Origin: Epinephelus fuscoguttatus
Lineage: Eukaryota; Chordata; Actinopteri; Perciformes; Serranidae
Direction: 5' to 3'
Assembly: GCF_011397635.1 (NCBI RefSeq)
Contig: NC_064753.1
Span: forward strand, 36,747,822 to 36,811,821
DNA length: 64,000 nt
Shown piece by piece: positions 2,681 through 36,636 of this stretch. The position numbers and the translations under genes are program-made. The notes beneath the pieces are model-generated. The model was given only the letters and a program-made list of their open reading frames with translations, was not told the DNA's origin and made no database searches. The first letter of the stretch is position 1. Every line of letters begins with the position of its first letter.

Positions 2681-5600
2681 TCAGATGCATTTGCTCATGC
2701 AGAGCAGCAGCTCCAGGCGCAGAGCGATGCGTGTGTGCCATCCGAGGGGGAGGATGCGGATGTAGCGTGCAACAATGGGGGGCCGTAGGAGGTTCTGCAC
2801 AGACGAGGAGCGGTCAGAGTTTCCATAAAACACCTGAGAGAGGGAGAGGAGCAAAAGGTCAGGATGGGTTCATTTAGATTTACAATAATACTGACTGAAA
2901 CTGTTATGTAATTAAAGTTACTATGGTTACTGCTAATAATATCAATAATGATTATAGCATATGGCTGCAGCAAACAATTATTTTCAAGACTTAAAAGATT
3001 GTTTGATTATGGAAATTGTTGGTGGCTAATTTCTTGTAAATTGACCCATTAAACTGCACAAGAGAGTAGAGATGAGATGATGCAATATTTCCTCAAGCTT
3101 CACATTTTGTCTGTGTCACATATATTCCACAGTTCAACTGACCCTGTTGTTTCCAGTCTGGTCTTTGTAATAGATCCAGTTGAGTTTTTCGTCTGTGCGG
3201 TACTGAACGCTGTACTTGGTGATCCACTCCTCAGCGTCACAGCGGCCCTGGGTGAGGATCCCTGACACCACCGTCACCTCCCTCAGGTCGATCTGCAGCC
3301 ACTGACTGCTGTCCTGGAACTTAGACAGCCAGGCACACCTGCAGGAGAAACACAAACACCGGGTGTGATGCAGCAGTTAAACATGGACACATGGTCCAGT
3401 TTGACCTGCTGATGTTTTCTCAGAGCAGATGGAGATGCATCATTACAGCTGGTTACAGACCTTTTACAGGTGTTATCAATAACATTAACAATGGCTCTGT
3501 TCTTTTCAACTGTACCAGTGAGCCATGATAATGTGACAGAGAGCTGGCATGCACAATATCAGGGCTAAGGGACTAAATGAAATTCGATAATCGTTAGTTT
3601 TATCATATACTCCTGTGCTTTTCTTATGTCTCATATGTCAAAATGTCTTCTGTGAAAAAGACCCGTTGCTTTGTTTATGATACCGAAACTGAACTTTTCA
3701 GAAAATATCTGATCAAAGAATTCCTAAATTGTTGATCAGTGTAAAGAGTTTGACTTCTTGGGTATAAAATTATATGCATCTTTTGCATCGTTGAGCCCAC
3801 AGAACAAGAGCCCTAGAGACTTCCACCAGCCGAGTGGATAACTTCCAGCGTAGAGTAGACGTCCGCTAACTTGAATGGAGATAAAATATTTAATTTTGTG
3901 GCTCTTCTAGACTTTCAAAACGTTATCGAACCTAATTGATCAAATCCAGATAGTCAGGGGCGTGGTCATAGCCCATTCTGGCTGTCATATGAAGGCAAAA
4001 TCTGGCCAGAATCAGGCCAAGTCTGTTATATAAATTTTGGGTATTTTTTAAAACTGAAGGCTACATTTTAATCAGTGCTCAAAAAGCATTGTTCCAAAAA
4101 ATACCATTTTTAAATATTTAGGGTGAGAGCTGTTGCACCCGGCTCTCACCATGAGGCTAATATTGGAAGAGAAAGAAAGAAAGAAAGAAAGAAATACTGT
4201 TTTCTATACAGAAAAAAATAGGTAAATAAAGTAACTACATTACCGAGGTGAGCTCGGTTGCACCTGTAACCACACCCAATAGTGATGTTATGGCTTCTTG
4301 AAGCACACCTGTACATCACAGAAGGCAGGTGAGAAGTGAAACCACTGATGGTCAGCAAACACGTGATTGTCAGAGGTATTGAATGTCTTTGTATAAAGCT
4401 GTATATAACATTTAAAGCATACTGTATCTGCGATTCAGAATCTGAGCTGGGATTGTCTGCATACGGCTCTCAACATGGAGGTGGCTGTGCCAACATGATC
4501 TCTTCCCCACTCGTCATATTTTCCTGCTTAGGCAGAAGCCTCCGGAGTTATTCAACAACAGCAACCATGCTGACAGAGCTAATGGCAGGGGCAAAAATCC
4601 CATTTCATAGTTGGGGGGGACAATAAACAGTAAAATTTTAGAGAATAATTCCAGGGGGGGACAAGGAAAAAAAGTTGTAGTCTGTCTTTTATACAGCATC
4701 TTTTACTGCAATTTGATGCTTTAATCTTCTCTCTATCTCTCCAACAGGCAGAGTGAATGTCTATACTAACTGAACTAAAACTAAAACTAAACATTTCCTG
4801 CAATTAAACAGGTAAAGTGGTTTATAAACAGTGTGCTGTGAGATCTGCCGCTGCGCACCTCACAACCGTGCGTAATAGTCGCACGTAATGACCGCTCCTC
4901 GTCTGCACGTCTTCGATGTTTGTCTCACTGACAGGAGGAGAGCCTACAGACAGGTACCCATACGAGCCGCTCCGCCACAACCGTGCGTAATAGTCACGCG
5001 TATTGACCGCTCCTTGTCAGTTAGACTGCGTGTCTTTCATGTTTGTCTCACTGACAGGTGGAGAGCCTACAGACAGGTACCCATTGCTCCGCCACTGACT
5101 GCTCTTGTCCTGTCCTCTCCCTCTTCTTTCTCTCCTGTCCTCTCTGACTATCACTAAACTCTGAGCTTAATCATTAGCTTTTAGCTTAGCAGCACTCGTA
5201 ATTGAGTAGGCTTTTGAACAATGCAGAAGAAATGTTGCAGACAGTTTATATTATCAGCCTGTGCCTGGGGCTTGTTGTAACAGTAAATGGGATGTGTTGT
5301 AACTTGTGTAAGTTAAACTGTGTCTGTGTGAGTGAACATCTTACCCTGCGATGCGCGATGTGGGCAGCGGTTCCAGCCACACGCTGCTACTGCTGCCAAG
5401 CAGCCCCGCCCGTTGGAAAGAGTGTGGGATATACCACTACTAGGAATGGGAGGGGACTAAATCTTTTAAGATTTAAATAGCACATTATTGTGCGATTATA
5501 ATGAGTACCGCTTACATTGTGCTGTTAATAAATACTACTGCATTGTTCAAAAATTATTAATTGTGTCTCAAATGATTCTGGGGGGGGACAGCTTTACTGA

Positions 5601-8600
5601 GGGGGGAGTCATGTCCCCCCTGTCCCCTCCGGGATTTCCGCCCCTGGCTAATGGTGTTAACACTGGGGAGGGGGGTGACCGAAGGCTGGGCTATTGTGCC
5701 ACTGTGTGAGCAAAGTGCAGAACAGCGGCAGACAGTTAGCTAGTGGGATACACACACAGGGACTCACATGCAAGAACATGCACACGGGGTCTACCGAAAC
5801 ACTCAACAGAGGGGCTTAGATTACAGCACACACAGAGGTAGCATGGCTTCATTCTCTGCCCAGGATGCCATTACTCTATCTTTACACACCAAATAGTGCT
5901 TTGCCGTTATATTATTGTTCTGAATGTCGTACACAGATCCTTTAAAATTGGAGGTGAGAAAAACAATGTAAAAACAGATCAGAGCCTTCAACACTGAGTC
6001 TACCAGCTCCTCAGAGTCTGCAGTTTTATTTAGCAAATCTATTCTTGCATCGCTTGTCTTATTTATATCTTAATGTTTTAAAGCAAGAGCATATGGGCAT
6101 GTCGACCTTAGCAAATGCACTTTACATAATGAGAAATGGGTTACATCTTTCTCTTTGACTGCATTTTTGACTGCTGTTAGACAGACACCACAGATGGCAC
6201 ACACCCAGACATTTGTTTATTAGGGTTAGAACAGTCGGCAACATCCTGGCAAAAATCTCAGCATTTTTTTGCGAGAGATTAAAAATATATGCAGCTTTAT
6301 AACTGCATACATTTTGTTTAAAATCTGTTTTGTTTTTGCGAGCAGAAAGGTCTATGTGTTGGGCTGCACCTACCCAAAGCCTTGGCTGTTGAGCCGGGCC
6401 TTGCTCGGGAGCCACGAGGAGAACCAGCCGGTGTACTGGTCCTGGTTGGAGCAGGTGATCTGGTCTGGACTCACCGATCCGGCCTCGAAGCCCAGAGGCT
6501 TGTGGTACGGACACTCTGCAGGAGGATCAGAGACAGAGTTATAAAACAGAGGTCTTAATTTAAATCTCTTTTGTTAATGTGACTGTTTTTAAAGGCCCCC
6601 TGGTCACACGGATTTCAAGGTCACCACCCCGACAGAGAAGTCCACAAACATGTCTGCCAACAGCTGAGCAATAAAAACACTGAAATGCGACCACCGATAT
6701 AACCTTTTCTAGGTGCTTAATTCTCCATCTTTTCATCCTTTCTCTCCCTCTCCATCCTCACACCCTCCTGCTCCCAAAGCCCCCGCTGTTAGCAGACCCA
6801 GTGTGACCCATATCCCATCCTAAAAGCCTGCAGTTTAATTCTCCACAGTGAGAGATCAGCGATGTCCATTAGGGTGGCAGGCGGACAGATGGCCATGTTC
6901 TACTCTCCACAGCTTTGTTGCTCCTATATTTTGATCTGTCAATCTGCCCTCTCACTTCCACTAAAAAACACATGAGCACAAGTCCTTTGTTGACTTAGTA
7001 AATGCACATTATAAAAACATAAACCAGGGAGACGAGAGAGCTGCACACAAGTTTTTTTTTATCCTAAAGACTCAGATGTAACATCAGCTGAGGATATGTA
7101 GAGCAAACCTGCTGCGCTTTTGTTTACTACTGGCTGAAGCGTATCTGGCACAGGGTCACATCCTGTCTAATCCCAGTATTACAACGCATACAGCAGCGGC
7201 AGCAACGCCTGTGTGAGTCAGGAGATAAGTGTTTACATAACAGTAATGCGAGTGACTCTATAGTCCTCCCTAATGTATTTCAAGAGTAGAATAAAAATAT
7301 TCAGATGGCTGCATTAATGGTAAACCCCGAGAGGTGAGACACAGTGAAACTGAGGTGAAAGAAAGTCTGAGGCCGCTCAGGAAAGTCTGTCTCACTCATC
7401 ATTTATCATCACCAGGTCCATGTCGTGGTAATTACTGGTTTCTGTGATTGTGCAATCGCCACAGTCTATTACGAGCCCTGTAATCTGAGCATCATGTTCT
7501 GAGATAATGAATATCTGCTGAACTTCTTTCTCCTCTCCGTCACCCGTTGCCATGTGATTTGTGGCTCAGCTGACTCACATTGATTCACCAAGGAAAACCC
7601 TTTCACCGTTCACTGTACATCAGCTCTGTTTTTCTCTTCTCTTCAAGTCTGACATGATTCAAGTCTGATCTTTATGTCTCAGGCCCAGTGAGGCTGCCAT
7701 CAGTCATGTTTGTTTGTGTGTTGCTTTGTAGAGAGATCTCAAAAACTTTCAGAGATTTGGCACAAAGTTTAGCCCCAGTCCTTAAAGTGATTTGGGAAAA
7801 ATGGAGATTTCCATCTGCAGATGAATGTGACAGGAAATGATCAAAAGCTCCACACCAGCTTCTAATGGATTATTTTGACAAGTGCTACGTCCAAGTACAA
7901 GAATTAACGAAAACAATCTGCCACATGTGTCCCATGATTGTCTTTATTGTGTGAGCTCTGATGCAGATGCAGACCACATTTTCTATTACTGACACATAAA
8001 TTTAGAGGATGCAGTGTTTCTGTTTCTTTTCATGGCTCCATCTGCATCATCTACTCTGAGGATGTCCAGTGGAGCATGTCCACCCTGTGGCGTCAAATCT
8101 GGAGTCTAATGCACTCATGCATGTACATGTACATACAGAGATTCCCCTTCTCTCCATCACACAAGAAATCTCTCCATCCATCTACATTATAAAGCTTAAA
8201 TTGTCTGTCATATAGTCAGCTCATTTAAATATTTTTTTCAAGAAAAATGCAACAAATTTGGTGGTTTCAGCCTCTCATTTACTTTGTGTTATATTATAGT
8301 ACAATGACTTTTTTGAAATTCATAAATAAAACTAATTAAAAAATTAATCCATGAATGGACTACATTTTTGGCAGATTACAGGAGCTGTTTGTGATATTCA
8401 GAGCATATCTATGATTTAGAGTCTGAGCCAGGATTGCCTGCACACGGCTCTCAACATGGAGGTGGCTGTGCCAACATGATCTCTTCCCCACTCGTCATAT
8501 TTTCCTGCTTAGGCAGAAGCCTCCGGAGTTATTCAAATGATGCAGGGAGTAGCCTTTTGTGTTCTTGACGCGGAAGGGGTCAGCAGTACGAAGGGATCGA

Positions 8601-11739: not shown

Positions 11740-12074
11740 CAGTGGTTCCCAACTGGTGGGTCATGGTCCAAAAGTGGCTCAATCTCACTCATGGACTGCA
11801 AGTGACTTGAATGTGACGAGTTTGAAAGTGCTTAAAGAGTCAACACACTTTACTTTGAAGTACAGTGAATTTGCGGCACACAGCTTTTATTTTGAAGTGC
11901 CGTCTCCTGTTGTAGAGTAAGTAACTAATGGACAGCTACTTGACAGAGATACAAAACTAGCTCGACAACATGGCAAACACAAGTATGACGCTGAATGTAT
12001 TAAACTGTGTGGACCTTGGACTAATGACAGAGGAGAAATTCGGACTCTGTGGCTGGACCAGTCGGGAACCACTG
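11740..12074. mobile_element. Small non-autonomous hAT element with perfect 8-bp duplication
   Basis: A 335-bp element with ends CAGTGGTTCCCAACTGG and, inverted at the right, CAGTGGTTCCCGACTGG. The flanks carry the identical octamer ATCTAGCA at 11732-11739 and 12075-12082. Both the terminal CAGTGGTTCCC word and the octamer duplication are diagnostic of hAT elements. No transposase frame is present. Confidence 0.88.
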
Positions 12075-12140
12075 ATCTAGCATACACTTCAACTGATCTA
12101 CTGACACATACCTGCCTAAGTTCAATACTTCTTGTAACTT

Positions 12141-12308
12141 AAATTGGTGTGAAAGAACAAAAAGCTAATTTATCAGGGTCAGTACTGATCTGAGGAGTTT
12201 CAGTGTGTGTGAATATCAAAAGATTTAATTAAATTGGTGTGAAAGAACAAAAAGCTAATTTATCAGGGTCAGTACTGATCTGAGGAGTTTCAGTGTGTGT
12301 GAATATCA
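12141..12308. repeat. Exact 78-bp direct duplication, 90-bp spacing
   Basis: Bases 12141-12218 and 12231-12308 are identical over 78 bp. Both begin AAATTGGTGTGAAAGAAC and end GTGTGTGAATATCA. The perfect match indicates a very recent duplication or an assembly artefact. No feature of known function overlaps it. Confidence 0.85.
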
Positions 12309-12996: not shown

Positions 12997-13516
12997 ATGA
13001 AGGCTCCTGTCAGAGCAACACGCAGGATTCTTCCACATTCAAAGAAGAGGAATCAAGTTCACTCTGCTCTCATCTACAGAGCTCACAAAGAGGTGAGAAT
13101 CACAGCAAAAATAAGAACTTGCATGGATATATGGTGTTTGACACTTGACCAAAAATTCTTGTTTGTCTTGAGGTGATTTCAGTTATTTTAAGAGGTAAAA
13201 AAAAAAATCCCATCCTCCAAAATGGACTGTACAGGTTGCTTTGAATTAAGACAATGAAAACAGTCCTCTGGTGTTTGTGCTACTCAAAACCTCCTGCAAC
13301 TTTCCCTCTCTCCCGCAGGTCAGTCCAGCTGGGATGAAGAGTCCAGACTTCCTGGCCAGTCGGCAAAGTTTTCCAAGACTGGTCCTGCTCAGGCTGGTGA
13401 GCTCAGAGGCTTCCCGGCTGTCAAAAGCCAACAGACTGAAAGTGATCACCCTGCGGGAGATCAGTGCTGCTCTTGTACTCGTACAACGGAGGATTCGTAC
13501 AAGAGCTGCTGCATGA
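12997..13516 (+). CDS. H2B-type histone-fold protein, two exons, 97 aa
   Basis: Exons 12997-13092 and 13319-13516 join in frame across a GT-AG intron (GAG|gtgaga ... cccgcag|GTC). The ATG has A at -3 and the first in-frame TGA upstream is at 12988-12990, so the start is well fixed. The product has a short basic tail (residues 1-20, KAPVRATRR, SKKR) and then a histone fold. Residues VHSALIYRAHKEVSP match H2B helix alpha1 and loop. VSSEASRLSKANRLKVITLREI (23-residue region near 59-81) aligns with the canonical H2B stretch [21 protein letters not shown]. It ends RRIRTRAAA soon after alpha3, so the H2B alphaC helix is absent (usual H2B about 124 aa). There is no histone 3' stem-loop; an ATTAAA follows at 13555, suggesting a polyadenylated, replication-independent variant. 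Function inferred only: a divergent, possibly germline H2B variant. A decaying H2B-derived gene is the alternative. Confidence 0.72.
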
Positions 13517-13554: not shown

Positions 13555-13560
13555 ATTAAA
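13555..13560 (+). terminator. Poly(A) signal ATTAAA of the H2B-like gene
   Basis: ATTAAA begins 39 bases after the stop codon, with a GT-rich stretch some 40 bases further on. It replaces the stem-loop expected for replication-dependent histone mRNAs. Confidence 0.45.
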
Positions 13561-21468: not shown

Positions 21469-24400
21469 TGTGAGACAGAATAGAGGGCATTTAATCGACA
21501 CAAAAGGGAAAATAGACAAAAGACGTACAAAAGAGAAACAGGCCTGGAGCTAGATGTCTGTTTGTGGCTTGTTTGTTTGCATAAATTAGAGGGTTTCATT
21601 AGCATATTGGAGTGGTCTTTTAATACAACGGTGAGGTCACACAGAGCTGGATGTGCTGCTGTGTCGAGCTGTTTATCACAGGGAACTACAAATTAAAACC
21701 TGTATATATATAGGATTGTAGTTCAGTGGGCAAACCCTCCTTTTATTTTTTATTTTTTATTTTTTATTTTTTAATCCAAGCATTTTAAGGTGACACTTTC
21801 TATTAAGGCCATGTCCATAATGCATTATACGCACATTTGCAAGACATTATTATGCATAGATAAGCCTTTATAAAACTCTGAATTAATGTTTACAGTCATG
21901 AATGACAAGTTTATATTTATAAACAGTTAAAAGTGGTTGAAATAATGTAATATCCTCCTGGGACTTTATCCTTTTTAATTTATCCTAGCTGTTTGGGATA
22001 AGTAGGACCAAGTAAGTATAAAAAACTAAACATTGTCAATCATAATTAAGTTCCAATGTCCTCAAACAAGTCCCAATGTCTTCTAATGAGTACTACCGAA
22101 TTAACAGCATCTTAGCTTGTTACTGTTGCTAAAATTGGTCAAATTTGTTGCCGTATCAAACTACAAACATTATTAATCACAAGTTTCAACCATAAAATGT
22201 GATCAGGTTTTGGACCATGTCCACTTTTGTGTCGGGATTGGCTGCAGACTGACTTAGCAGAAATGGCTGCTATCTTGTTTTTACATGGATTAGTGTATTG
22301 TGCTCTTACTACCACTAGATGGCACAAAAAAGTGTCTACGAACGAGGACAATAGGCCTAAGTTAAGAGGAGTGAAGTATAAGGTGAAGTTAACCATACAT
22401 GTGATGTCCACATATGAGCACACAGGGTCTCAGGAGGATATAAGGTCAGCATTTATGACCTGAGCAGCCAGCCATCAGGGGGCAATTGAGATGTCATGGC
22501 TTCACTTTTGGGGAGCGGTCATGCTGTCTGTCTTTGCTATACAGTCTGTGCTCTCCTGTGTCTTTAGATTCAACTCATTTTGACTCAAGTGACAACACTT
22601 AGTCCATTTATCAGATTTTGTGCAGCAGGAGCCATAAAAGGCTTTATACAACTTTTCCCAAATGTGCAGTATGTATAAAATTAGCGGAGAAGCCTAAATA
22701 AAACTCTGTAATGTAGGTTATTATGGGAGTATAAAACATTGTGAGGATTCCACTTTTTGCTTATAGTGGTCGTAATACCTCAGGGCTACTATTAGTATGC
22801 AAATAAGTCTGCCATCAGAGATTTTGTCGTACTATAATATCTGTTACTCCAAGGGATCTAATATCTCTGGTTTTAGGCCACTGTGAGTAATGTTACAGAC
22901 CAATGAGCAGTACTGCTTCATGGCAATGACAGTATGGTCACAGCCGCTTACACTGTCCTCCAGACTTGATCTCCCAGCTGCTGGACCCGGTGGTGGACCC
23001 CTGGTTAGACAGAGAGACCTGCTACAACTTGATCCCTGTTGCAGAGTCGTACACCGGGCCCCGACTGTCGTTTCCCCTCTCTGTCTCTGATACGAATGCT
23101 CTCCTCAGTGCATTTAAGGAGCAGCAGGTACTGTAATAAGGGTCTTTCTCTCTCTGTTAGTTTCATTGCCTCACATAATATTTTGAGTGTTTTTACTGTC
23201 TCCATTACTTTTCACAGACTCTACATGCCAGATATGTTCTGCAGCTGCTGTACGAGACCAAGAAGCTCCTCAAACAGATGCCCAACATCATCCACCTGTC
23301 GACATCCTACACCAAAGAGATCACTATATGTGGTGGGTGACCAGCGCCTCTGTTTCACTTGCAAATTCAAGATTCATAGTTGTCATTTTTAAAAGAAAAC
23401 TTTTTATATTTAGAAGTATTCCTTCCTTACACAACAGTCGTTTCAGTCTCATCGTTGCCATTTGCTGCTGTGATGAGCTGCTGCTTGTGCACCTGCTACA
23501 TCACACAGTACAGTGGGCAGCTGAATAAATAAATGACCTGCTTACTGGTTAAATAATCACTGATGTCTTTAAATGTGTTTTAAATACAGCTAACTGTATC
23601 TTAATGGCAGCGTTCCAAGAATGGAGGTCGTGTTTATTTGCACACTGATCAGGCACTTGACTCCTTTTTCACTGCTGCCTCCTCCTGCAGATACGCATCT
23701 CATTAAAGCCAAGAATACTTGTTATGACTAAAACAGAAGACACAACGTTTGGTGGTTGTTTTCATACCGTCGGGGAATTTTACACCTCCTCTGTAAATCA
23801 GGGATTAATTAAACCAGAAATAGGATTTAAAGTTCTTAACTGCTGTGATTTTCATTTTGGCACAGGTGATCTGCACGGGCGGCTTGATGACTTACTTCTT
23901 ATATTTTATAAGGTAAAGCTAAATTTTTTAGCATCGTTCAAACATCGCTGAAGTGTGCACTCAATACATCTACGATCTGATTTTAAGTTTGTTGATTTCA
24001 CTGTTGTTCAGAATGGCCTTCCCTCTGCGGACACGCCTTATGTGTTCAATGGGGACTTTGTGGACCGCGGGAAAAAGTCCGTAGAAGTAGTCGTCCTCCT
24101 GTTCGCCTACCAGCTGCTTTACCCTGATTACATGCACCTGAACCGAGGCAACCATGAAGACCACATCATGAACCTCCGGTGGGTTGGGTGAAGAAGTGAA
24201 ATGAAAGAAAACAAGTGTCCATCTAGGTTTACCACAAACACAAGGGTACTAAAATTAATTTTTATGTTGTTGTTTTAGATATGGGTTCACAAAAGAAGTC
24301 ATGCAGAAATACAAGGTACCGTGACGTCCACACACGTCCTTATTCTGCTTTTATTATGTCCAGAACTCATCTGTGAAAATAATTCCTTTCCTGCTGCATG

Positions 24401-27400
24401 CAGACTCATGGACGAGAGATCCTCCAGCTGTTTCAGGATGTTTTCAGCCTTTTGCCTGTCGCAACCGTCATTGATGGAAAGATCCTAATTGTTCATGGAG
24501 GGATATCAGACCAGACCGACCTGGACTTCCTCAGCTCCATAGAGAGGCACAAGGTCAGTGGAAACTAATGCCTCCAGCTGTGTTGTTATAGCTGCAGTAA
24601 TGGATTTTGGCCACAAGAGGTCAGAAAAGTATTTTTAAAAATGCTGACAAATTCACAGCCAACACTCGACAATGTAGACTGGTAACGTTACCAAACAGCT
24701 GTCTAAAGTCAGATCCAGCAGACAAGGTCCATGCTGAATGCTAAAGTGTTTTTAAACAACTTTCAGTACTGCACATCACATACCTTTTTATTGCTTGTGT
24801 TTTTTTTATTCTTTTAAATGACTGGCCAAAGATACAGAAAATGATCATTCATCAATCAGATAAATGAAAAGTAATGATGGATTTCTTCATGAACAGCCGT
24901 CTAAAAATTGAAATTAAAATTCATTGTGTTCTCATTAAGTCCATAAAAGCAATTCTGTGCAAATCACTGCTTGAAGAAGAGGAGCATATGGGGCTTTACA
25001 GTGTGTACAACATACTGTAGGTTACCCTCTGACCTCAGACACTCAACATACATCAGTTTGAACTTCAGTTTAGAAAGCAAATAACTTTGTCCTTATTTTA
25101 TTTCTGTCTTCCCTTCTTTGCTCCTGTAGGTGAAATCTGCCCTGAGGTTTCCCAGGTGTAGTTTGGAGCAGCTGGACATCAGTCAGTCCTGCAGACAAAT
25201 GAAAAGAATGAGATCCACAGCCAGCTCTCGTCCCAGCAGCAGTCGCAGCTACAACAAGAACCAAAGAACCCCGAGCCACAGGTGTGACAGCACTGCAGCC
25301 CACAGACGCTCACAGATGTTGTAGGGGTTTTATTAAGGTCAGTGTACTGTTAGAGTTCTCGTCTGAAGCGACCCTCTCTTCTACTCCTTCTGTAGAAAGA
25401 GGCGATGTGGACACAGCCGACAAGACAGCGCCGCCTCCACTTCTTCCTCCTCCTCCTCATCATCCTCGTCCTCTTCGCTCTGCTCTCCTCGAACTCCATC
25501 GTGCCTCTCTCCTCGTCCGTGCCTGTCTTCTCCCTGCACGCCTTACAATATCAATGTCCTCCAAGTGCCTTTCCTGGACTCTCTGTCCTCTGTCCCCCCT
25601 CCTTCACCTCCACAACAGGATCGGGATTGGAAACAGGTCAGAGGAGTGGATTCAGTGGAGAAGAAAATAATATTGCTCAATTCCGCTGTATAGTGTCTTA
25701 TTTTTTCTGATTTCCTCTCTGTTGCAGATAGTGGATATATTGTGGAGTGACCCTAAAACCCAAGAAGGCTGCAGTCCCAACACATTCAGAGGAGGAGGCT
25801 GCTACTTCGGCCCTGACGTCACACAGAGACTGCTGCTCCAACACGGACTCCAACTGCTCATCAGATCCCATGAGTGCAAACAGGAGGGATATGAGCTCTG
25901 TCATGATGGACAGGTAGATGGGATGCAACAAATCCATACAGATTGTCCAAATGCTTAAAATGACTGAATCATGAGACAAATTATGCTTGCTTGTTCTACA
26001 GGTGATCACCATTTTCTCAGCATCAAACTATTATGAGGAGGGAAGTAACCGTGGTGCCTACATCAAAGTAGGCCGAGAGCTGGTTCCCCGCTTCTACCAG
26101 TATCAAGTCAGCCGCACAACACGCAAACTCACCCTGACACAGAGGTACAACAGCTGCCTGGTGTGTTTATAATTGTTTATAGTGGCTCTTGAAGATTTCA
26201 GTCCTGGATGATCCAGGACAGGGATTCTTGGCAACACATGTATTACGACAGGTCACAGAGTTCTGGGGTCAGCAAAACAAACTTTGTCGTTTTAATGAAG
26301 AAGTCAGGCAATAATTGGGCCTTTTCCCATCATTCTGTGAGCAATTGTGATCCGATTTCACACTGCACACAGGATGAATCTGCAGACAGTAAAAGGGTTT
26401 GGTTACCTCGCTAATGCCTACCATACACTAGAAGACTTAGAAAATACTTTGAGAATACTTTGAAACAACTAGGTCTGACACCCCTTGACTTTTAAGTCAC
26501 ACACAAGATTTTGCGATGACTGGGCATTTTGCAGGGTCGCTGTTTGCAAGACTACAACTAGATTCCTTTTGAGATTATTTCCCTTCCTGCTCCCGGTGAA
26601 AAACTTTACACTAAACTCACTTTAAGAAATATGATATATTTACAATTTCTTATGTGTACATAACTCAAGCAGCACAAGCTAAAAGAGGTCATATGTCGAT
26701 AGTATTCTTGTCAGTTTGGCATCAATATAATCCATGAAGAAACTGTATTTGCATACAAACTTTACATTTTGGATTTTGTCACCTTAAGGAGACCGTGGGA
26801 ATGAGAGGCGAGCCATTTCAAAAGTAGAGATTTCTCACTAAAATAAGTGCCGGTTGGTTGATCCGATACACGCCAATTGGATTCTTTAGATAGATTAAAT
26901 TAGTCTGTGATAGTGAAATCACATGAGAAGTCATTTGGTGTAAGGCTGGCAAAAGTTGAAGGTGTGCGGCCTGTCACCTGTTGCTCTTTATCTAAAAGTT
27001 CACTGTGGCTGTTCTGTCTTGTTCCATTACTTCCTGCAATATTCCAAATTGATGTACTGTAAAGAAAGGTTTTTTGGTTTTTTTGACGTATTTTTGTGAA
27101 ATTATAGTGCTGAGCTCATTGAAAAACTCATTGCATTTCCTTAACTGCTTTCAGTGTGAAGCTGCAGTAGTAGGGTATGTTCAGTTTGAATGACCTTAAA
27201 GCTGCAGTAGGTAGAAAGCCTGAAAACGGTTGATTTTTGAGTCTCATCTGAGTTAGGTTTCGTTCGTCTCCGCCCTGAGCCCCTCCTACCAGACGAGCAC
27301 GCGAGTATTTTATCCTACTTGGTTCTGTTTCTCCCTCTCTGGGAGCCTCAGCTCTCGCTCTCCGCACAGCAGCCCTCCCCATCCCTCCCTCGTGGCCCCG

Positions 27401-29837
27401 CACATATACCCCTGAGGCTCGGCTCTCCCTCACCGCACAGCAGCCCTCCCCATCCCTCCCTCGTGGCCCCACACATATACCCTGAGGCTCGGCTCTCGTT
27501 CTCCACGGAGAGCCCTTAGCTCCCCTCCCACGGCCGACCCTTGCGCCCTCCGGCTGGGCCCGGCCCCACCTCACCCTTCCCCTCCCTCCGGGGCTCCGGG
27601 GAACCGAGTTCTGTCTTCCTTTTTTTGGGTTGTTTAGCCGTGCTGCTAAATGTTGGAATAGCTATTTTACCTGGTGCACTGTTCGCCATTGCCGCTTGCT
27701 CTCCCCTTCTGCTGGTGGCACAGGAACACGCATATGCAGTAGAACAGCCAATAGGAACGCAGTGGTCTGAGCTGACCTTTGATTGGTTGATGCACATCGG
27801 CACAATACTGATTCTTTAGAGACTGAACACAGAGCCATGGTGAGGTGCAGAAACCTATTGTTTGTCTCAGACCACTTGATTTACATTATGCTTAGAGGAT
27901 ATTATCAAATTTTTACTCAATTATACCAAAACAATGTTGCCTACTGGAGCTTTAATACAGCATTTTTTCTGCAAATATAAACCTTGACACCCACTTAATT
28001 ATATTGCAAATGTGTAAATATTGCAATACCTTCCTCAGTGGGCCATAGGCTCAGTCACCATTGTCTTACCTTATAGATAATGACTTAACGTCGTCAAAAC
28101 AAGAAATTTGAAGATGCAACCAGGCTCTGTGTAGTTGTGATGGACATTTTCACTGCTTTACTTATATATTTTCACGTTTCACAGAATAAATCATTGACAG
28201 ATTAATCGACAATGAAAATAGATATCTGTAAGAAGGCTTTTGTTTTCATGTTCGTCTGCAGAGTACGGGTTGCAGAAGGCTCTGCCCTCAAGGCCCTGAA
28301 GGAGAAGCTGTTCTCCCATCGCTCTGAGCTGCTGTCGGGCCTCCAGCAGTATGATCAGAATAACACTGGTGCGCTCTTCTCACTGCATTTACCTCACTTA
28401 TAAACATGTATTTACCCAGGTGGACATGTATAGTTGTTATATGAAAGCATATCTTTCTTTCAGGTACTGTTTCAGTTTGTGAATGGGCTCAGGTGCTGGA
28501 GTCTGTACTGAGACTGGATCTGCCCTGGAGGACACTTCGTCCACACTTAGCCCGTCTGGCACCAGATGGCAGTGTGGAGTATCAGTCCAGCTTTGAGGAC
28601 ATGGAACCAGGGCTTCCTCTGCCTCAGGTCAGAGAGGTGAAGGGCTCTCCTAATCAGAGGTGGAAAGCAACCAAGTACATTCACTCATATAGTGTCCTTA
28701 AGGGCTGTTTTGAGAAACTTGTGACATACCATTCGTATTTTGCCGGTAAAAAGTTGCTGAAAAGAAGCTGGATAATCTTCTAAAGCATTTACACATTCAT
28801 GTAAATTTAATATTTCCAACACAGGAGACTTGACCTTTTTCACTTGACAGTAACAATAGGATGCCTTGCTGGAGTTTACACCTCTCTATATTCAGGAATA
28901 GGAATACTTTTACTTATAAAGGAGAATTTTTCCCTAGTGGGCGGCACGGTGGTGAGGTGGTTAGCACTCTCGCCTCACAGCAAGAGGGTTGCCGGTTCGA
29001 TCCCGGGCGTGGGAGCCCCTCTGTGCAGAGTTTGCATCTTCTCCCCGTGTCAGCGTGGGTTCTCTCCGGGCACTCCGGCTTCCTCCCACAGTCCAAAGAC
29101 ATGCAGATTGGGGACTAGGTTAATTGATAACTTTAAATTGTCCGTAGGTGTGAATGTGAGCGTGAATGGTTGTTTGTCTCTATGTGTCAGCCCTGCGATA
29201 GTCTGGCGACCTGTCCAGGGTGTACCCTGCCTCTCGCCCGATGTCAGCTGGGATAGGCTCCAGCCCCCCCCGCGACCCTCAAGAGGATGAAGCGGTTAGA
29301 AGATGAATGAATGAATTTTTCCCTAGTGGTACTGGAGCTTTGAGGATTATAGTACTTATTCGACCATTGTTGCTACTAAACATGGCTAGTGGTTGTTGAG
29401 TATTCTGTTTTTATATTTTCCCCTTTTCTTCTTTTAGATGACTCCAAACTTGGCTGAAACTCTGTTCAGATACAGGACAGACATTGAGATTATATTCAAC
29501 ATTATAGACAAAGACCATTCAGGTAAAAAAAATATTGAATCTCTTTGAAAACGATGTGTCAATCATCCAGAATGAATTCCTTTAAGTTCCGTCTGTGTTG
29601 CCGTGTACAGGTCTGATCTCCATCGAGGAGTTTCGTCACACCTGGCGGCTCTTCAGCGCCCACCTGGGAGTCGATATTGACGACAGTGCCATCGATGACC
29701 TAGCTCGAAGTATCGACTTCAACAAAGACGGCAGTATAGACTTCACAGAGTTCCTGGAGGCCTTCAGAGTGGTACACAAACTGGACAACAAGGATCACCA
29801 ACTTAATGGAAGGATGGATAGAGAAAAGTGTTCGTGA
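16449..29837 (+). CDS. ppef1: Protein phosphatase with EF-hands 1 (PPEF1), 18 coding exons
   Basis: Ca2+-regulated PPP-family Ser/Thr phosphatase of sensory neurons. Exons: 16449-16509, 18784-18816, 19201-19328, 19427-19487, 22964-23127, 23218-23332, 23866-23912, 24012-24178, 24279-24315, 24404-24553, 25130-25281, 25396-25636, 25728-25913, 26002-26144, 28262-28368, 28464-28627, 29438-29522, 29611-29837. They join in frame to 755 aa. N-terminal MGC suits myristoylation and palmitoylation. The IQ motif ([18 protein letters not shown], about 37-56) should bind calmodulin. Metal and catalytic motifs are intact: GDLHG near 188, GDFVDRG 217-223, RGNHED 248-253, H302 in HGGIS, H500 in SHEC. A Ser-rich insert (about 322-452, with a run of 12 Ser) splits the catalytic domain. 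EF-hand loops lie at 593-604, 676-687 and 716-727. Exon 16 could instead end at 28636 (+3 codons). I choose ppef1 over ppef2 from its place between rs1 and phka2. Confidence 0.95.
17780..17989 (+). mobile_element. tRNA-derived SINE with perfect 19-bp target duplication
   Basis: The head carries an A-box-like AGTAGCGTAGTGGATAGTG and a B-box-like GGCTCGACTCC, as in tRNA-derived SINEs. Next come TTTGCTGCATGTCA, a (CT)n tract and a tail ending near AAAGCCCCC. Identical 19-bp flanks (17761-17779 and 17990-18008) mark a target-primed insertion. A relative in the opposite orientation lies at 40783-40962. Confidence 0.85.
17893..17930. repeat. (CT)n microsatellite inside a SINE
   Basis: About 19 CT units at the internal pyrimidine tract of the SINE. 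The related copy at 40783-40962 has a shorter GA tract at the same place. Confidence 0.85.
18674..18713. repeat. (TG)n microsatellite
   Basis: About 20 TG units in ppef1 intron 1, ending 70 bases before the exon 2 acceptor. Confidence 0.85.
18876..18933. repeat. (TG)n microsatellite
   Basis: About 29 TG units in ppef1 intron 2, shortly after the 33-bp exon 2. Microsatellites of the same sense therefore flank that very small exon on both sides. Confidence 0.85.
19626..20722. mobile_element. hAT-like element in ppef1 intron 4
   Basis: The left end is CAGTGTTGGAG and the right end ACCCCAACACTG, inverted relatives with the hAT CAGTG terminus. The flanking octamers AGTGCTCA (19618-19625) and AGTGCACA (20723-20730) match at seven of eight bases. 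Inner sequence near both ends repeats words like TAGTTNAACTAC. The 1097-bp body shows no intact transposase. Confidence 0.7.
21420..21466. repeat. (TG)n microsatellite
   Basis: About 23 TG units in ppef1 intron 4. Confidence 0.85.
27196..27955. mobile_element. TTAA-bounded element with GC-rich core, in ppef1 intron 14
   Basis: It begins TTAAAGCTGCAGTAGGTAG and ends GCCTACTGGAGCTTTAA, so the two ends are inverted copies that both include TTAA. TTAA termini are typical of piggyBac-type target sites. The 760-bp body has a GC-rich core with a tandem pair of about 70 bp (27357-27490, sharing GCACAGCAGCCCTCCCCATC). Long open frames across the core are compositional. A relative of the left end occurs at 52645. 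Confidence 0.55.
28941..29312 (+). mobile_element. Teleost tRNA-derived SINE (371-bp type), full length
   Basis: The head GCGGCACGGTGGTGAGGTGG and B box GGTTCGATCCC are tRNA-like. The body has the common fish-repeat words CGGCTTCCTCCCACAGTCC and CTGGGATAGGCTCCAGCC, and the tail is a short GAAT repeat. A 17-bp target duplication flanks it (28924-28940, 29313-29329). Two more copies lie at about 50827-51141 (plus) and 55765-56130 (minus). It sits in ppef1 intron 16. Confidence 0.88.
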
Positions 29838-32729: not shown

Positions 32730-35700
32730 ATGGAGCTCCTGGCAGCACTGGTTGCTCTGCTCTGCGTCTACGCTCCAGGTACTTCTTCAACTTAACTTCC
32801 ATACTTGTGCTGTGTTTCCAGACAACAACACGCATTCATTGTGAAACTGTCCTACAGTGTGTGGAGCTGCAAGATGCAGTGGTTTAAGACACCTGGAGAA
32901 CGGGCAGACGTTTTTCCGGTATGGTGGACTGCTAGTGATCTTCTGCTGTCGTCCTGGTTACAAGCTCCATGGATACAAAACCAACAGCTGTGTGTCAGGA
33001 CACTGGTCCCGGGATACCCCAGTATGTGTTGGTGAGGCGCTTCATTCATGAATTCTGTTTCTGTAAGTAGATGCATTTAGAGGATTATGTTGAATCATTT
33101 GTCTCAACTTTTGTTCAAGTAGTATTCTCCTTTTTTTGCTTTTGCTATAGTGCAGAGTAGAGAATTTGTAGAGAGCTGAGAGGAGACAACAACAAAGGCA
33201 ACAGAGGTCCTCGGTCAGACTCAAATTTTTCTACTTTCCATGATATCCTTTCCCCTCTATCAGGTACAGGCTGCTCCAACCCAGGGCTGCTCACCCACGG
33301 GACGAGCAGCATGAATGAGGATGGCTCCTGGGCAGTGTTCAACTGTAATAGTGGCTTTCGGCTACATGGGCCCTCAATGTTATACTGTAAGGGCCACACC
33401 TGGAATAGTACAAAGCCTGTGTGCAAAGGTGAGCCTAAAAAATACTCTGCTATTAAAGCAATAGTTTGACATTTTTGAAAATATGCTGTCTTGCAGAGGG
33501 TTAGATGAGAATAGTTATACCTCTCTCATATCTGTTGGGTAAGTTTGTAGATGGAGCTAGCAGCTATTTAGCTCAGCATAAAGACTGGGAAAGGGGGAAA
33601 AGGATAGTTTGTCTCTGTTTTGAAGGAACATGCATTGGTTTCAGTTTCCGAGAAGCGTTTGAGCCACCAATCATGGGTGTTTTTAACTGACCCTCTGCAG
33701 CATTTCACAGCTTCATTTGAGCCACCAAACCCAGGTGCTTTTCACCCTCCTTTTCCAGTAACTTTTGTGCCACCAAACTCAGGTATTTTAAACCAAAACA
33801 TGATCCTTTCCTGACCATAAACAATGCCTAAACCTAATCAGACATTTGCCACAGTGTTGCTGAAAAGTGTCATTTAATCATGGTTTTACAGAAACGTACA
33901 ACGAGAACATTTTTTTCTGGCCATTAGGTTGTCTAAGTGTGTATTTTCAGAGATACAGGACTTCAGAGCAATAGCCATTTGTTTTTGGGATAACGGGCTG
34001 TCGCAGAAATTTGTTGTTGGTCCAGCTGGACATTTTTCAGGCAGATGGGGCTTCGGTATTTTGGTCCATTGGAACAATGGGCAGACCACTCATATGTTAC
34101 TGTAAAAATATAACGAGCAGTATTGATCTTTTCATCTAACTCCGGCCAAGAGAGTGAATAACCACAGATGCAAATTAGCTATTCAGCTAACTCTGGTATA
34201 GAACCTGTTCTGTACATGGTCCCTGTCAACTAAACCAATAAACCAAACTAAACTAAACTGAATTTCCCAAAATTATTGACTATTCCCTTAAATGTGACCT
34301 TGGTACTGCCTTTGTATCACATTGTGTTAATTCTCCCATTTTCATTGATTCCAAACAGCACTGTGACTGAACTGAGACTCTTCTCTCCTTGTTAGAGTCT
34401 GACATGATGAGCTCAGTCTTGGGTGTCAGTGTTCAAAAGCCAAACATACACCAAGACTTCCAGGCTGCTGCAGTTTTGAAGACACAGCAACAATCCCACT
34501 ACGACATCCTCGCCAATACTGCCTCCAAAGAAACAAACCTCAAATTCGGCTTGTTGTCTCACACGCAATCCCAAATGTCCCACAGGGAGAGGATTAAAGT
34601 GACTAACCCCAAAGTCCACCTGCAGCAAGATTTTCAGTTTCTTAATTTGAAAGTCAAAGATGGAGTCCAAACAACTCATCATGAGGCTCAACTTCAGGAG
34701 GCAAATACAGCTCAACGACCAGAAACTGGAACTGGAAGACATGGCTCAGAGGCAAAAGCTTCACAGGAGGAAGCAAAGAAGCTGGATGAAGTTGCCTCTA
34801 AATCACATCTACCAACCACCGCCTCATCTACCTTATCATTAGTGTCAGGAACAGAAAGATCAGCATCTTCAACACCTTCATTTTCAACAGCCCATACACC
34901 TGCTGTCATAAATGTGATGATTGCACCGACTTCACCTCTCCACCTCACAAAATCTCCTTCCCCTGTGCTTGGCAGTGAAAAAGCGCCAAAGTTTGAAGAA
35001 CCTGTCACATCCTGGGATGATGTGAATCCATCTGAAGTGGTAACCAGCTCCTCACAAACTGCAGATGAAGACCAACAGGCTGAAACTGTCCTCCAGTATC
35101 CTCCACTGTCTCAGCCTGGGTCCGTAGAGAAAGAGGAGCCCACCGAGACGTCAAAATACACTTTATCTACTTTGGTTTATTTGATTTCTACCACTCTCTC
35201 CTCTACTTCATCACCTGCTTCCTCTGCACCCTCCCTCTCTACCTCAACTACCTCAAGTCCCAGCTCCACCAAGTCCAATAATGTGCTTTCAAACACCTCC
35301 ACCACCACTGAGCCAAGACTTCACCAAACTAAATACCACAGCCTCACAGTGAACACCACCTCCAAACCACCTCTGCTGGCTACAAGACTCAGACCCATGT
35401 GCACGTACCCACCTGTGCCCGCTCACGGGACCTTCTACTTCCGGAATGTAGAGAACCCAGGTCCCAGGGAGTACAGACATTACATACAATACGCCTGCTA
35501 CCCTGGTTACACGCTGGCTCATGGAGACATTCACAGCTACTGTCAGCAGGGGGGCACCTGGAGCGGAGTCACACCTGTTTGTCTGGGTAGGTGGTGTCGC
35601 TGCTTTTCGACTTTTGATTTATTTGAAAATGGCTGACAAGGAAAAGAAAAGATGTGCTTATAGCTAATGAAAAGGGAGCATGATAAGAGCTTTATTCAGA

Positions 35701-36636
35701 TATTGTTTTGTTGTTTATCGTTTATATTGTTATACAGAAAGTCCTCACATTTGAGAAGCTGGAATCGACTAAGTGTAAACTCAATGTGCTTAAGATACAT
35801 CGTATATGATAAATATGAAATATCATGTAAGATAATAAAGTATTATATATATAGAAACAAGGGGGACATGACAAAAACAAATAAGGTATTATCTTTATCC
35901 TTTAAAAAAAAAGAGGAGATTCAGTCTGTGTTTCAGTCATATAGATTTATCCTGTCAGTTATCTGTTTAAAAGATAATAACATCAGTTCTTCTGCTACAC
36001 AGATCATCTCATCCTGAAATAACTCATACTGCCAAAGATCAGTTTTAACGCTACAAGTGAGTTACAGCCTCTGCTGCTGTAATAGATTCAAACTGAGTCC
36101 TCTCCAGTCATTTACCTCTGCCAACCCTGAGAGTCAGCACATAAATGCTTAGGTTAATCTCTCATATCGTAGCTGTTGTAATGACCCTTAAATTTGTTAA
36201 TTCTCCCTGAACTGATCCATCCTCTGTCCTTACTGTTTGTCTCCAGAGTTGACACCATGTTCAGTCAACAACGGAGGCTGTTCCCAGCTGTGCTCTCACT
36301 CCCAGCACCACAATCAGACCTCCAGTCAGAACCAAACCAGAACTCAGTGCCACTGCAGAGCTGGATTCACTCTGCTGGATGATGGGCGGACATGTCGAGG
36401 TGAGCTTGTTTATGCCTTTTTCTTTCCTTGTAACATTCTTCCTGAATCCTCTGGGCTCTTCCTAATAACAATGCAGCGTTCACTGAGATGTGTTGCAGCA
36501 CAACAGGGAATCTCCTTCACATGTTTTATGTGTCTGATGTTTCATGGCTCACAGACGAGCGTACAAGTGAGCTGTGAAGTTTATTGCAGCACCATCTACT
36601 TGATACTTTAGGTAGTCTCTAAGTTACACGTGCCTG

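What the first reader, a model, noticed from the sequence alone, without database searches (positions are those of the whole stretch)
12997..13516. Intron-split, tail-truncated H2B-like histone next to rs1 and ppef1
A two-exon gene encodes a 97-residue protein with clear H2B fold marks (EASRLSKANRLKVITLREI against [19 protein letters not shown]). It has a basic N-terminus, lacks the alphaC helix, lacks a histone stem-loop and has an ATTAAA signal. Canonical H2B genes are intronless and clustered. Established knowledge: mammals have divergent germline H2B variants, some X-linked (H2B.W, H2B.L). Inference: this may be a fish germline H2B variant, possibly ancient in this block.
Basis: partly seen in the sequence, partly recalled or inferred. 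Interest (0 to 1): 0.72.

Follow-up and report, generated by a model that had tools for sequence, protein, structure and literature searches.

The report
Short intron-split fish H2B variant
A fish genome carries a small gene for a strongly altered and shortened version of the DNA-packaging protein histone H2B, interrupted at exactly the same point as a little-studied H2B relative known from egg cells, which suggests an old, undescribed member of that group.

Summary
Exons 12997-13092 and 13319-13516, joined by a 226-nt GT-AG phase-0 intron, encode a 97-residue basic protein between rs1 and ppef1. H2B is its best match by phmmer against PDB, by an HMM of this genome's own H2Bs and in a whole-genome search, where the 28 non-self loci read are all H2B. 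Pfam's Histone model misses it: it is very divergent (24 of 82 aligned residues identical).

The new point is the intron. The one other intron-split H2B found in this genome (C15, H2B.K-like) has its intron at the same codon boundary and phase (YKVLKQ|V versus YRAHKE|V). A published survey gives such an intron only to H2B.K (vertebrates) and H2B.N (mammals, alphaC truncated), both expressed in oocytes. The window gene is most likely an old, fast-evolved branch of that type, without alphaC and outside both known loci. Long neutral decay is unlikely. Expression, orthologs and age could not be tested, nor could the fold. It is a new variant of a known kind.

The parts
12997..13092 (+). Exon 1: ATG, basic N-terminus, alpha1-like segment ending ...LIYRAHKE
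   Evidence: aligned with H2B alpha1 by phmmer; the H2B HMM gives 25.8 bits to the spliced product and 18.4 to the frame holding exon 2 alone
13093..13318 (+). Intron, 226 nt, GT-AG, phase 0, at the same codon boundary as the intron of the H2B.K-like gene on C15
13319..13516 (+). Exon 2: VSPAG...EASRLSKANRLKVITLREI...RTRAAA and TGA stop; alpha2, L2 and alpha3 region, alphaC not recognisable
13555..13560 (+). ATTAAA poly(A) signal, starting 39 nt after the end of the stop codon
2687..6462 (-). rs1 (retinoschisin) exon matches 6373-6462, 3140-3337, 2687-2839; other exons not mapped
   Evidence: tblastn with a probe from recall; Pfam F5_F8_type_C on the last two
23862..29780 (+). ppef1 (EF-hand phosphatase) exon matches; 5' exons not mapped
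   Evidence: probe from recall; Metallophos, EF-hand on two exons

Best explanation
The feature is a protein-coding H2B variant gene that descends from the same intron-bearing H2B stock as H2B.K and H2B.N. Shown here: the open frame, the homology to H2B, the intron slot shared with this genome's H2B.K-like gene, no Rfam stem-loop, and no recognisable alphaC. Inferred: it is spliced and polyadenylated in germ cells, most likely oocytes or early embryo, independently of DNA replication. The protein would pair with an H2A and replace H2B in some nucleosomes. Without alphaC those nucleosomes would lack H2B's share of the acidic patch and the C-terminal ubiquitination lysine. With an altered L2 loop they would hold DNA and bind patch-reading factors differently, giving looser or specially marked chromatin.
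For: H2B homology and control. Whole-genome search, 31 matches: 2 are the gene's own exons; 28 of the 29 others had loci and all 28 are H2B (27 with the exact test motif, 1 with a single change). Intron at an identical boundary and phase to the C15 H2B.K-like gene, in a stretch that phmmer aligned without gaps and without knowing the intron. Literature: intron at one shared place in H2B.K and H2B.N only; H2B.N truncated in alphaC; both in oocytes (PMC8857922). Neutral decay to about 0.95 changes per site (my Jukes-Cantor estimate) would leave 82 codons free of stops in 4.2% or 5.4% of trials, with 9-19 frame-breaking indels expected at assumed rates. No stem-loop match, as in the H2B.K-like locus.
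Against: Sequence alone does not favour H2B.K over canonical H2B (24 of 82 identical to each), and in the genome search canonical H2Bs are the next best hits while the H2B.K-like gene is not listed. The locus matches neither H2B.K nor H2B.N. The extra residue and proline in alpha2 could upset the histone fold, and no structure was obtained. No transcripts, no orthologs. Codon-position identity shows only mild constraint (0.43, 0.49, 0.38 against the H2B.K-like gene; 0.45, 0.51, 0.28 against canonical). One of four canonical control loci (L023) also lacks a stem-loop match, so its absence alone is weak.
Confidence: 0.55

Rival explanations
1. It is an old variant now dying or just dead: a gene recently released from selection whose frame is still open.
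For: Very low identity, Pfam Histone silent, proline and extra residue in alpha2, alphaC not recognisable, only mild codon-position asymmetry.
Against: Open frame, splice sites, start codon and poly(A) signal are all intact. A long neutral history is unlikely under the simulation; only a recent death would fit.
Confidence: 0.2
2. It is an intact gene, but its product no longer works in nucleosomes. Like the sperm protein H2B.L, it may be a basic, histone-fold-derived protein with a non-chromatin role or a sperm-packaging role.
For: pI 12.0; altered alpha2 and missing alphaC; precedent of H2B.L in the subacrosome and the same suggestion for H2B.N (PMC8857922).
Against: The end of alpha2 (EASRL) and the N-x4-IT-x-REI stretch of L2 and alpha3 are kept, as expected if pairing with H2A and H4 still matters.
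Confidence: 0.15
3. It is a diverged duplicate of a canonical H2B that gained its own intron independently.
For: Equal identity to canonical H2B and to the H2B.K-like protein (24 of 82 each); canonical H2Bs are the next best hits in the genome.
Against: The intron falls on the same one of roughly 250 possible slots (82 aligned codons times three phases) as the H2B.K-like intron.
Confidence: 0.07
4. Chance open frames that resemble H2B.
For: Pfam gives no hit.
Against: 0 of 100000 residue shuffles reach the identity (the one gap was placed to fit and shuffles were not realigned). The exon 2 frame outscores the best of 100 resampled windows. Exon 1 and the intron slot agree as well.
Confidence: 0.02

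Closest known systems
H2B.N (H2BN1, mammals)
   Same: Two exons with the intron in the same part of the histone fold as H2B.K; C-terminal truncation that removes alphaC; strongly diverged fold (42.4% HFD identity to canonical in human, PMC11742582 passage); poly(A) signal reported.
   Different: Reported only in mammals, overlapping MYO1D-DT (PMC9526256 passage); this gene lies between rs1 and ppef1. No direct sequence comparison with H2B.N was possible.
H2B.K (H2BK1, bony vertebrates)
   Same: Identical intron boundary and phase to this genome's H2B.K-like gene; neither locus has a stem-loop match.
   Different: The C15 gene keeps a near-canonical fold (exon 2 is 92% identical to canonical) and a full alphaC; the window gene has neither and lies elsewhere.
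H2B.W and H2B.L (mammalian testis variants)
   Same: Diverged H2Bs of presumed germline use.
   Different: Called intronless and mammal-only in PMC8857922, although its methods annotate exons for H2B.W and a cited title speaks of an interrupted X-linked H2B gene.
Canonical replication-coupled H2B
   Same: Fold family.
   Different: Single open frames, mostly clustered on C3, C4, C12 and C22; stem-loops found in 3 of the 4 canonical loci examined.

Membership tests
Histone H2B superfamily | Significant H2B sequence match over alpha1-L1-alpha2-L2-alpha3 | tested here: met
   phmmer E 6.4e-5 to canonical H2B; 25.8 bits to the own-genome H2B HMM; 28 of 28 non-self loci read are H2B. Pfam PF00125 not met.
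H2B.K | Intron in the histone fold at the shared position | tested here: met
   Same boundary and phase as the gene in L032
H2B.K | Shared location near GBX1, ASB10 and ABCF2 | tested here: not met
   A neighbourhood of homeodomain, ankyrin and ASC channel genes on C15 holds a different, near-canonical gene. The human order is recalled apart from ABCF2 beside H2BK1; ABCF2 itself was not found in the 46 kb read there.
H2B.K | Near-canonical fold with full alphaC | tested here: not met
   24 of 82 identical; no alphaC recognised
H2B.N | C-terminal truncation that removes alphaC | tested here: met
   definition
H2B.N | Location beside MYO1D(-DT) | tested here: not met
   Flanks are rs1 and ppef1. 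This genome's myo1d locus itself was not searched: 13 tries unanswered.
H2B.N | Groups with mammalian H2B.N in a tree | not testable with these tools
H2B.N and H2B.K | Oocyte-biased, polyadenylated expression | not testable with these tools
   Only the ATTAAA signal and the lack of a stem-loop match were seen
Replication-coupled H2B | 3' histone stem-loop, no intron | tested here: not met

The most novel reading that the evidence does not exclude
This is a living member of an alphaC-less, intron-bearing H2B lineage outside mammals. Either fish have kept an H2B.N-type histone at another place, so H2B.N is far older than reported, or truncated oocyte H2Bs without an acidic patch arose twice from H2B.K.
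Probability: 0.35. Interest if true: 0.72.

Novelty: new variant of a known kind. Interest (0 to 1): 0.5.

Why it matters
In the papers seen here, an intron-bearing H2B without alphaC is described only from mammals, as H2B.N, which mouse lacks and whose protein has not been determined experimentally. A fish counterpart would let one ask, in laboratory fish, what an H2B without its half of the acidic patch does in oocytes. It would also bear on whether H2B.K and H2B.N share an ancestor, which the published tree could not settle.

Tried and rejected
Relatives of the 97-aa protein in viral contigs and genome contigs: none confirmed (84 and 537 pattern matches); these collections are viral and prokaryotic.

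An alphaC relic in another frame (recent frameshift): rejected, scores within shuffles in all three frames.

Further intron-bearing or diverged H2Bs in this genome: nine weak Histone-model places chosen from the listing (151 matches, list cut) were read; 6 are H2A-like and 3 match none of the H2A, H2B, H2B.K-like, window or short H3 probes. The other weak rows were not read, so 'one other intron-split H2B' means one found.

Literature, open-licence PMC only: no paper holding ppef1, H2B and synteny; none with histone H2B variant, teleost, oocyte and intron; H2B.N, H2B.K and fish together give one paper; the wider listings (one search showed 25 of 831) showed no title on such a fish gene. Three papers were opened: PMC8857922, PMC9526256, PMC11742582.

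Waiting scripts, made only to space out retries; scripts also ended with a wait. The first form of the resampling test crashed and was rerun; the motif count read one strand only and was redone on both.

Full report
WHAT IS THERE. The window is a stretch of contig C2 of a 1.05-Gb genome in 26 contigs, held here without a name. A two-exon gene occupies 12997-13516. The product is 97 aa, pI 12.0. The gene lies between rs1 on the minus strand and ppef1 on the plus strand; naming these two rests on human probes typed from recall plus Pfam domains.

IS IT H2B. Yes, but far diverged. phmmer against PDB found 173 sequences at E up to 10; of the 60 shown, 59 are named as H2B and one is labelled H4. 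The best single canonical H2B has E 6.4e-5. The top row (E 9.5e-11) is a chain with two H2B copies and is inflated by counting both. Pfam's Histone model does not report the protein even at E 10. An HMM built from eight H2Bs of this genome plus its H2B.K-like protein gives the spliced product 25.8 bits. The open frame that holds exon 2 scores 18.4 bits, against a best of 11.6 in 100 resampled windows. In a whole-genome search with the protein, 31 matches were found: 2 are the gene itself and 29 are others at E 0.002 to 2.9. Loci were given for 28 of the 29; all 28 are H2B (27 with the exact test motif, one with a single change). The remaining one was not read. No second copy of the window gene appeared.

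THE INTRON. The Histone family search listed a partial match on C15. Reading it showed a two-exon gene, MTNDISKKKG...YIYKVLKQ | VHPDTG..., with an 80-nt phase-0 intron. Exon 2 is 92% identical to canonical H2B. Around it lie frames with a homeodomain, ankyrin repeats and an ASC channel domain, which I read as gbx1, asb10 and an asic gene. Human H2BK1 is beside ABCF2 on 7q36.1; the order GBX1-ASB10-ABCF2 is recalled, and ABCF2 was not found in the 46 kb read here with a recalled probe. I therefore call the C15 gene H2B.K-like rather than proven H2B.K. The window gene's intron falls at YRAHKE | V, the same boundary and phase. Raman et al. 2022 (PMC8857922; abstract, passages, and sections 5 part 1, 6, 7, 9, 10 and 11 part 1 seen) state that H2B.K and H2B.N are the intron-bearing H2Bs, with the intron at the same place; that most H2B.N lost alphaC and that H2B.N arose in mammals; that H2B.K reaches bony fish; and that both are expressed in oocytes. 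PMC9526256 (passages seen) agrees. The shared slot is the main evidence that the window gene belongs to this stock rather than to canonical H2B, because identity does not decide it (24 of 82 to each). The comparison with H2B.N rests on the papers; I had no H2B.N sequence.

WHAT CHANGED. Kept: EASRL at the end of alpha2, N-x4-IT-x-REI across L2 and alpha3, Y-x3-K-x-V at the intron, SF in alpha2. Lost: a recognisable alphaC in any of three frames, hence H2B's acidic-patch residues and the C-terminal ubiquitination lysine (roles and from recall). Altered: the L2 loop ([10 protein letters not shown] to NRLKVITLRE), plus one extra residue and a proline inside alpha2. Whether alpha2 still folds is open, since the structure job did not complete.

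IS IT ALIVE. The frame, splice sites, start and ATTAAA signal are intact. In a simple neutral simulation at 0.95 changes per site (my Jukes-Cantor estimate from positions 1 and 2), 4.2% (from H2B.K-like) or 5.4% (from canonical) of 20000 trials keep 82 codons free of stops. At assumed rates of 0.05 to 0.1 indels per substitution, 9 to 19 frame-breaking indels would be expected. This argues for selection over most of its history but not for the present. Codon-position identities show only a mild excess at positions 1 and 2. No transcript data or relatives could be consulted; two collection scans confirmed none.

3' END. No Rfam family reaches its threshold anywhere in the window. In six control loci the same search found five histone stem-loops, in three of four canonical loci (L027, L030, L034), and none in canonical L023, in the H2B.K-like L032 or in L001, which holds this gene. 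With the ATTAAA signal this fits a polyadenylated mRNA, as published for most H2B.K and H2B.N genes, but L023 shows that a missing match is not decisive.

HOW IT PROBABLY WORKS. Inferred: a germline, most likely oocyte, histone that replaces H2B in some nucleosomes and removes H2B's part of the acidic patch. A dying gene, a non-nucleosomal role, or an independent intron gain are ranked as rivals.

FILING. It meets the intron test of H2B.K and the truncation mark of H2B.N, but fails the location of both and H2B.K's conserved fold. I therefore file it as an unnamed intron-bearing H2B variant related to that pair, not as H2B.N or H2B.K. The searches of open-licence PMC made here listed no paper that, by title, describes such a fish gene; only three papers were opened.

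Noticed in passing
11740-12074: A hAT-like non-autonomous element about 0.9 kb upstream of the gene: inverted ends CAGTGGTTCCC/GGGAACCACTG flanked by the same 8 bases ATCTAGCA on both sides; the class name is from recall.
   Followed up: partly
12139-12308: A 90-bp tandem duplication, 1.9 copies at 100% match, so very recent or an assembly effect.
   Followed up: no
L032 (C15:37469000-37475000) with L035-L038: The H2B.K-like gene lies about 10 kb from an ASC-channel (asic-like) gene. From recall, human H2BN1 near MYO1D also lies close to ASIC2 on 17q, and H2BK1 close to ASIC3 on 7q. H2B.K and H2B.N may thus be copies from an early whole-genome duplication, making H2B.N older than mammals. Not tested: the myo1d search did not complete.
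   Followed up: partly
34371-36608: Downstream of ppef1, plus-strand frames with a Sushi repeat and an EGF/FXa-inhibition-like domain: an unidentified gene, probably of a secreted protein.
   Followed up: no
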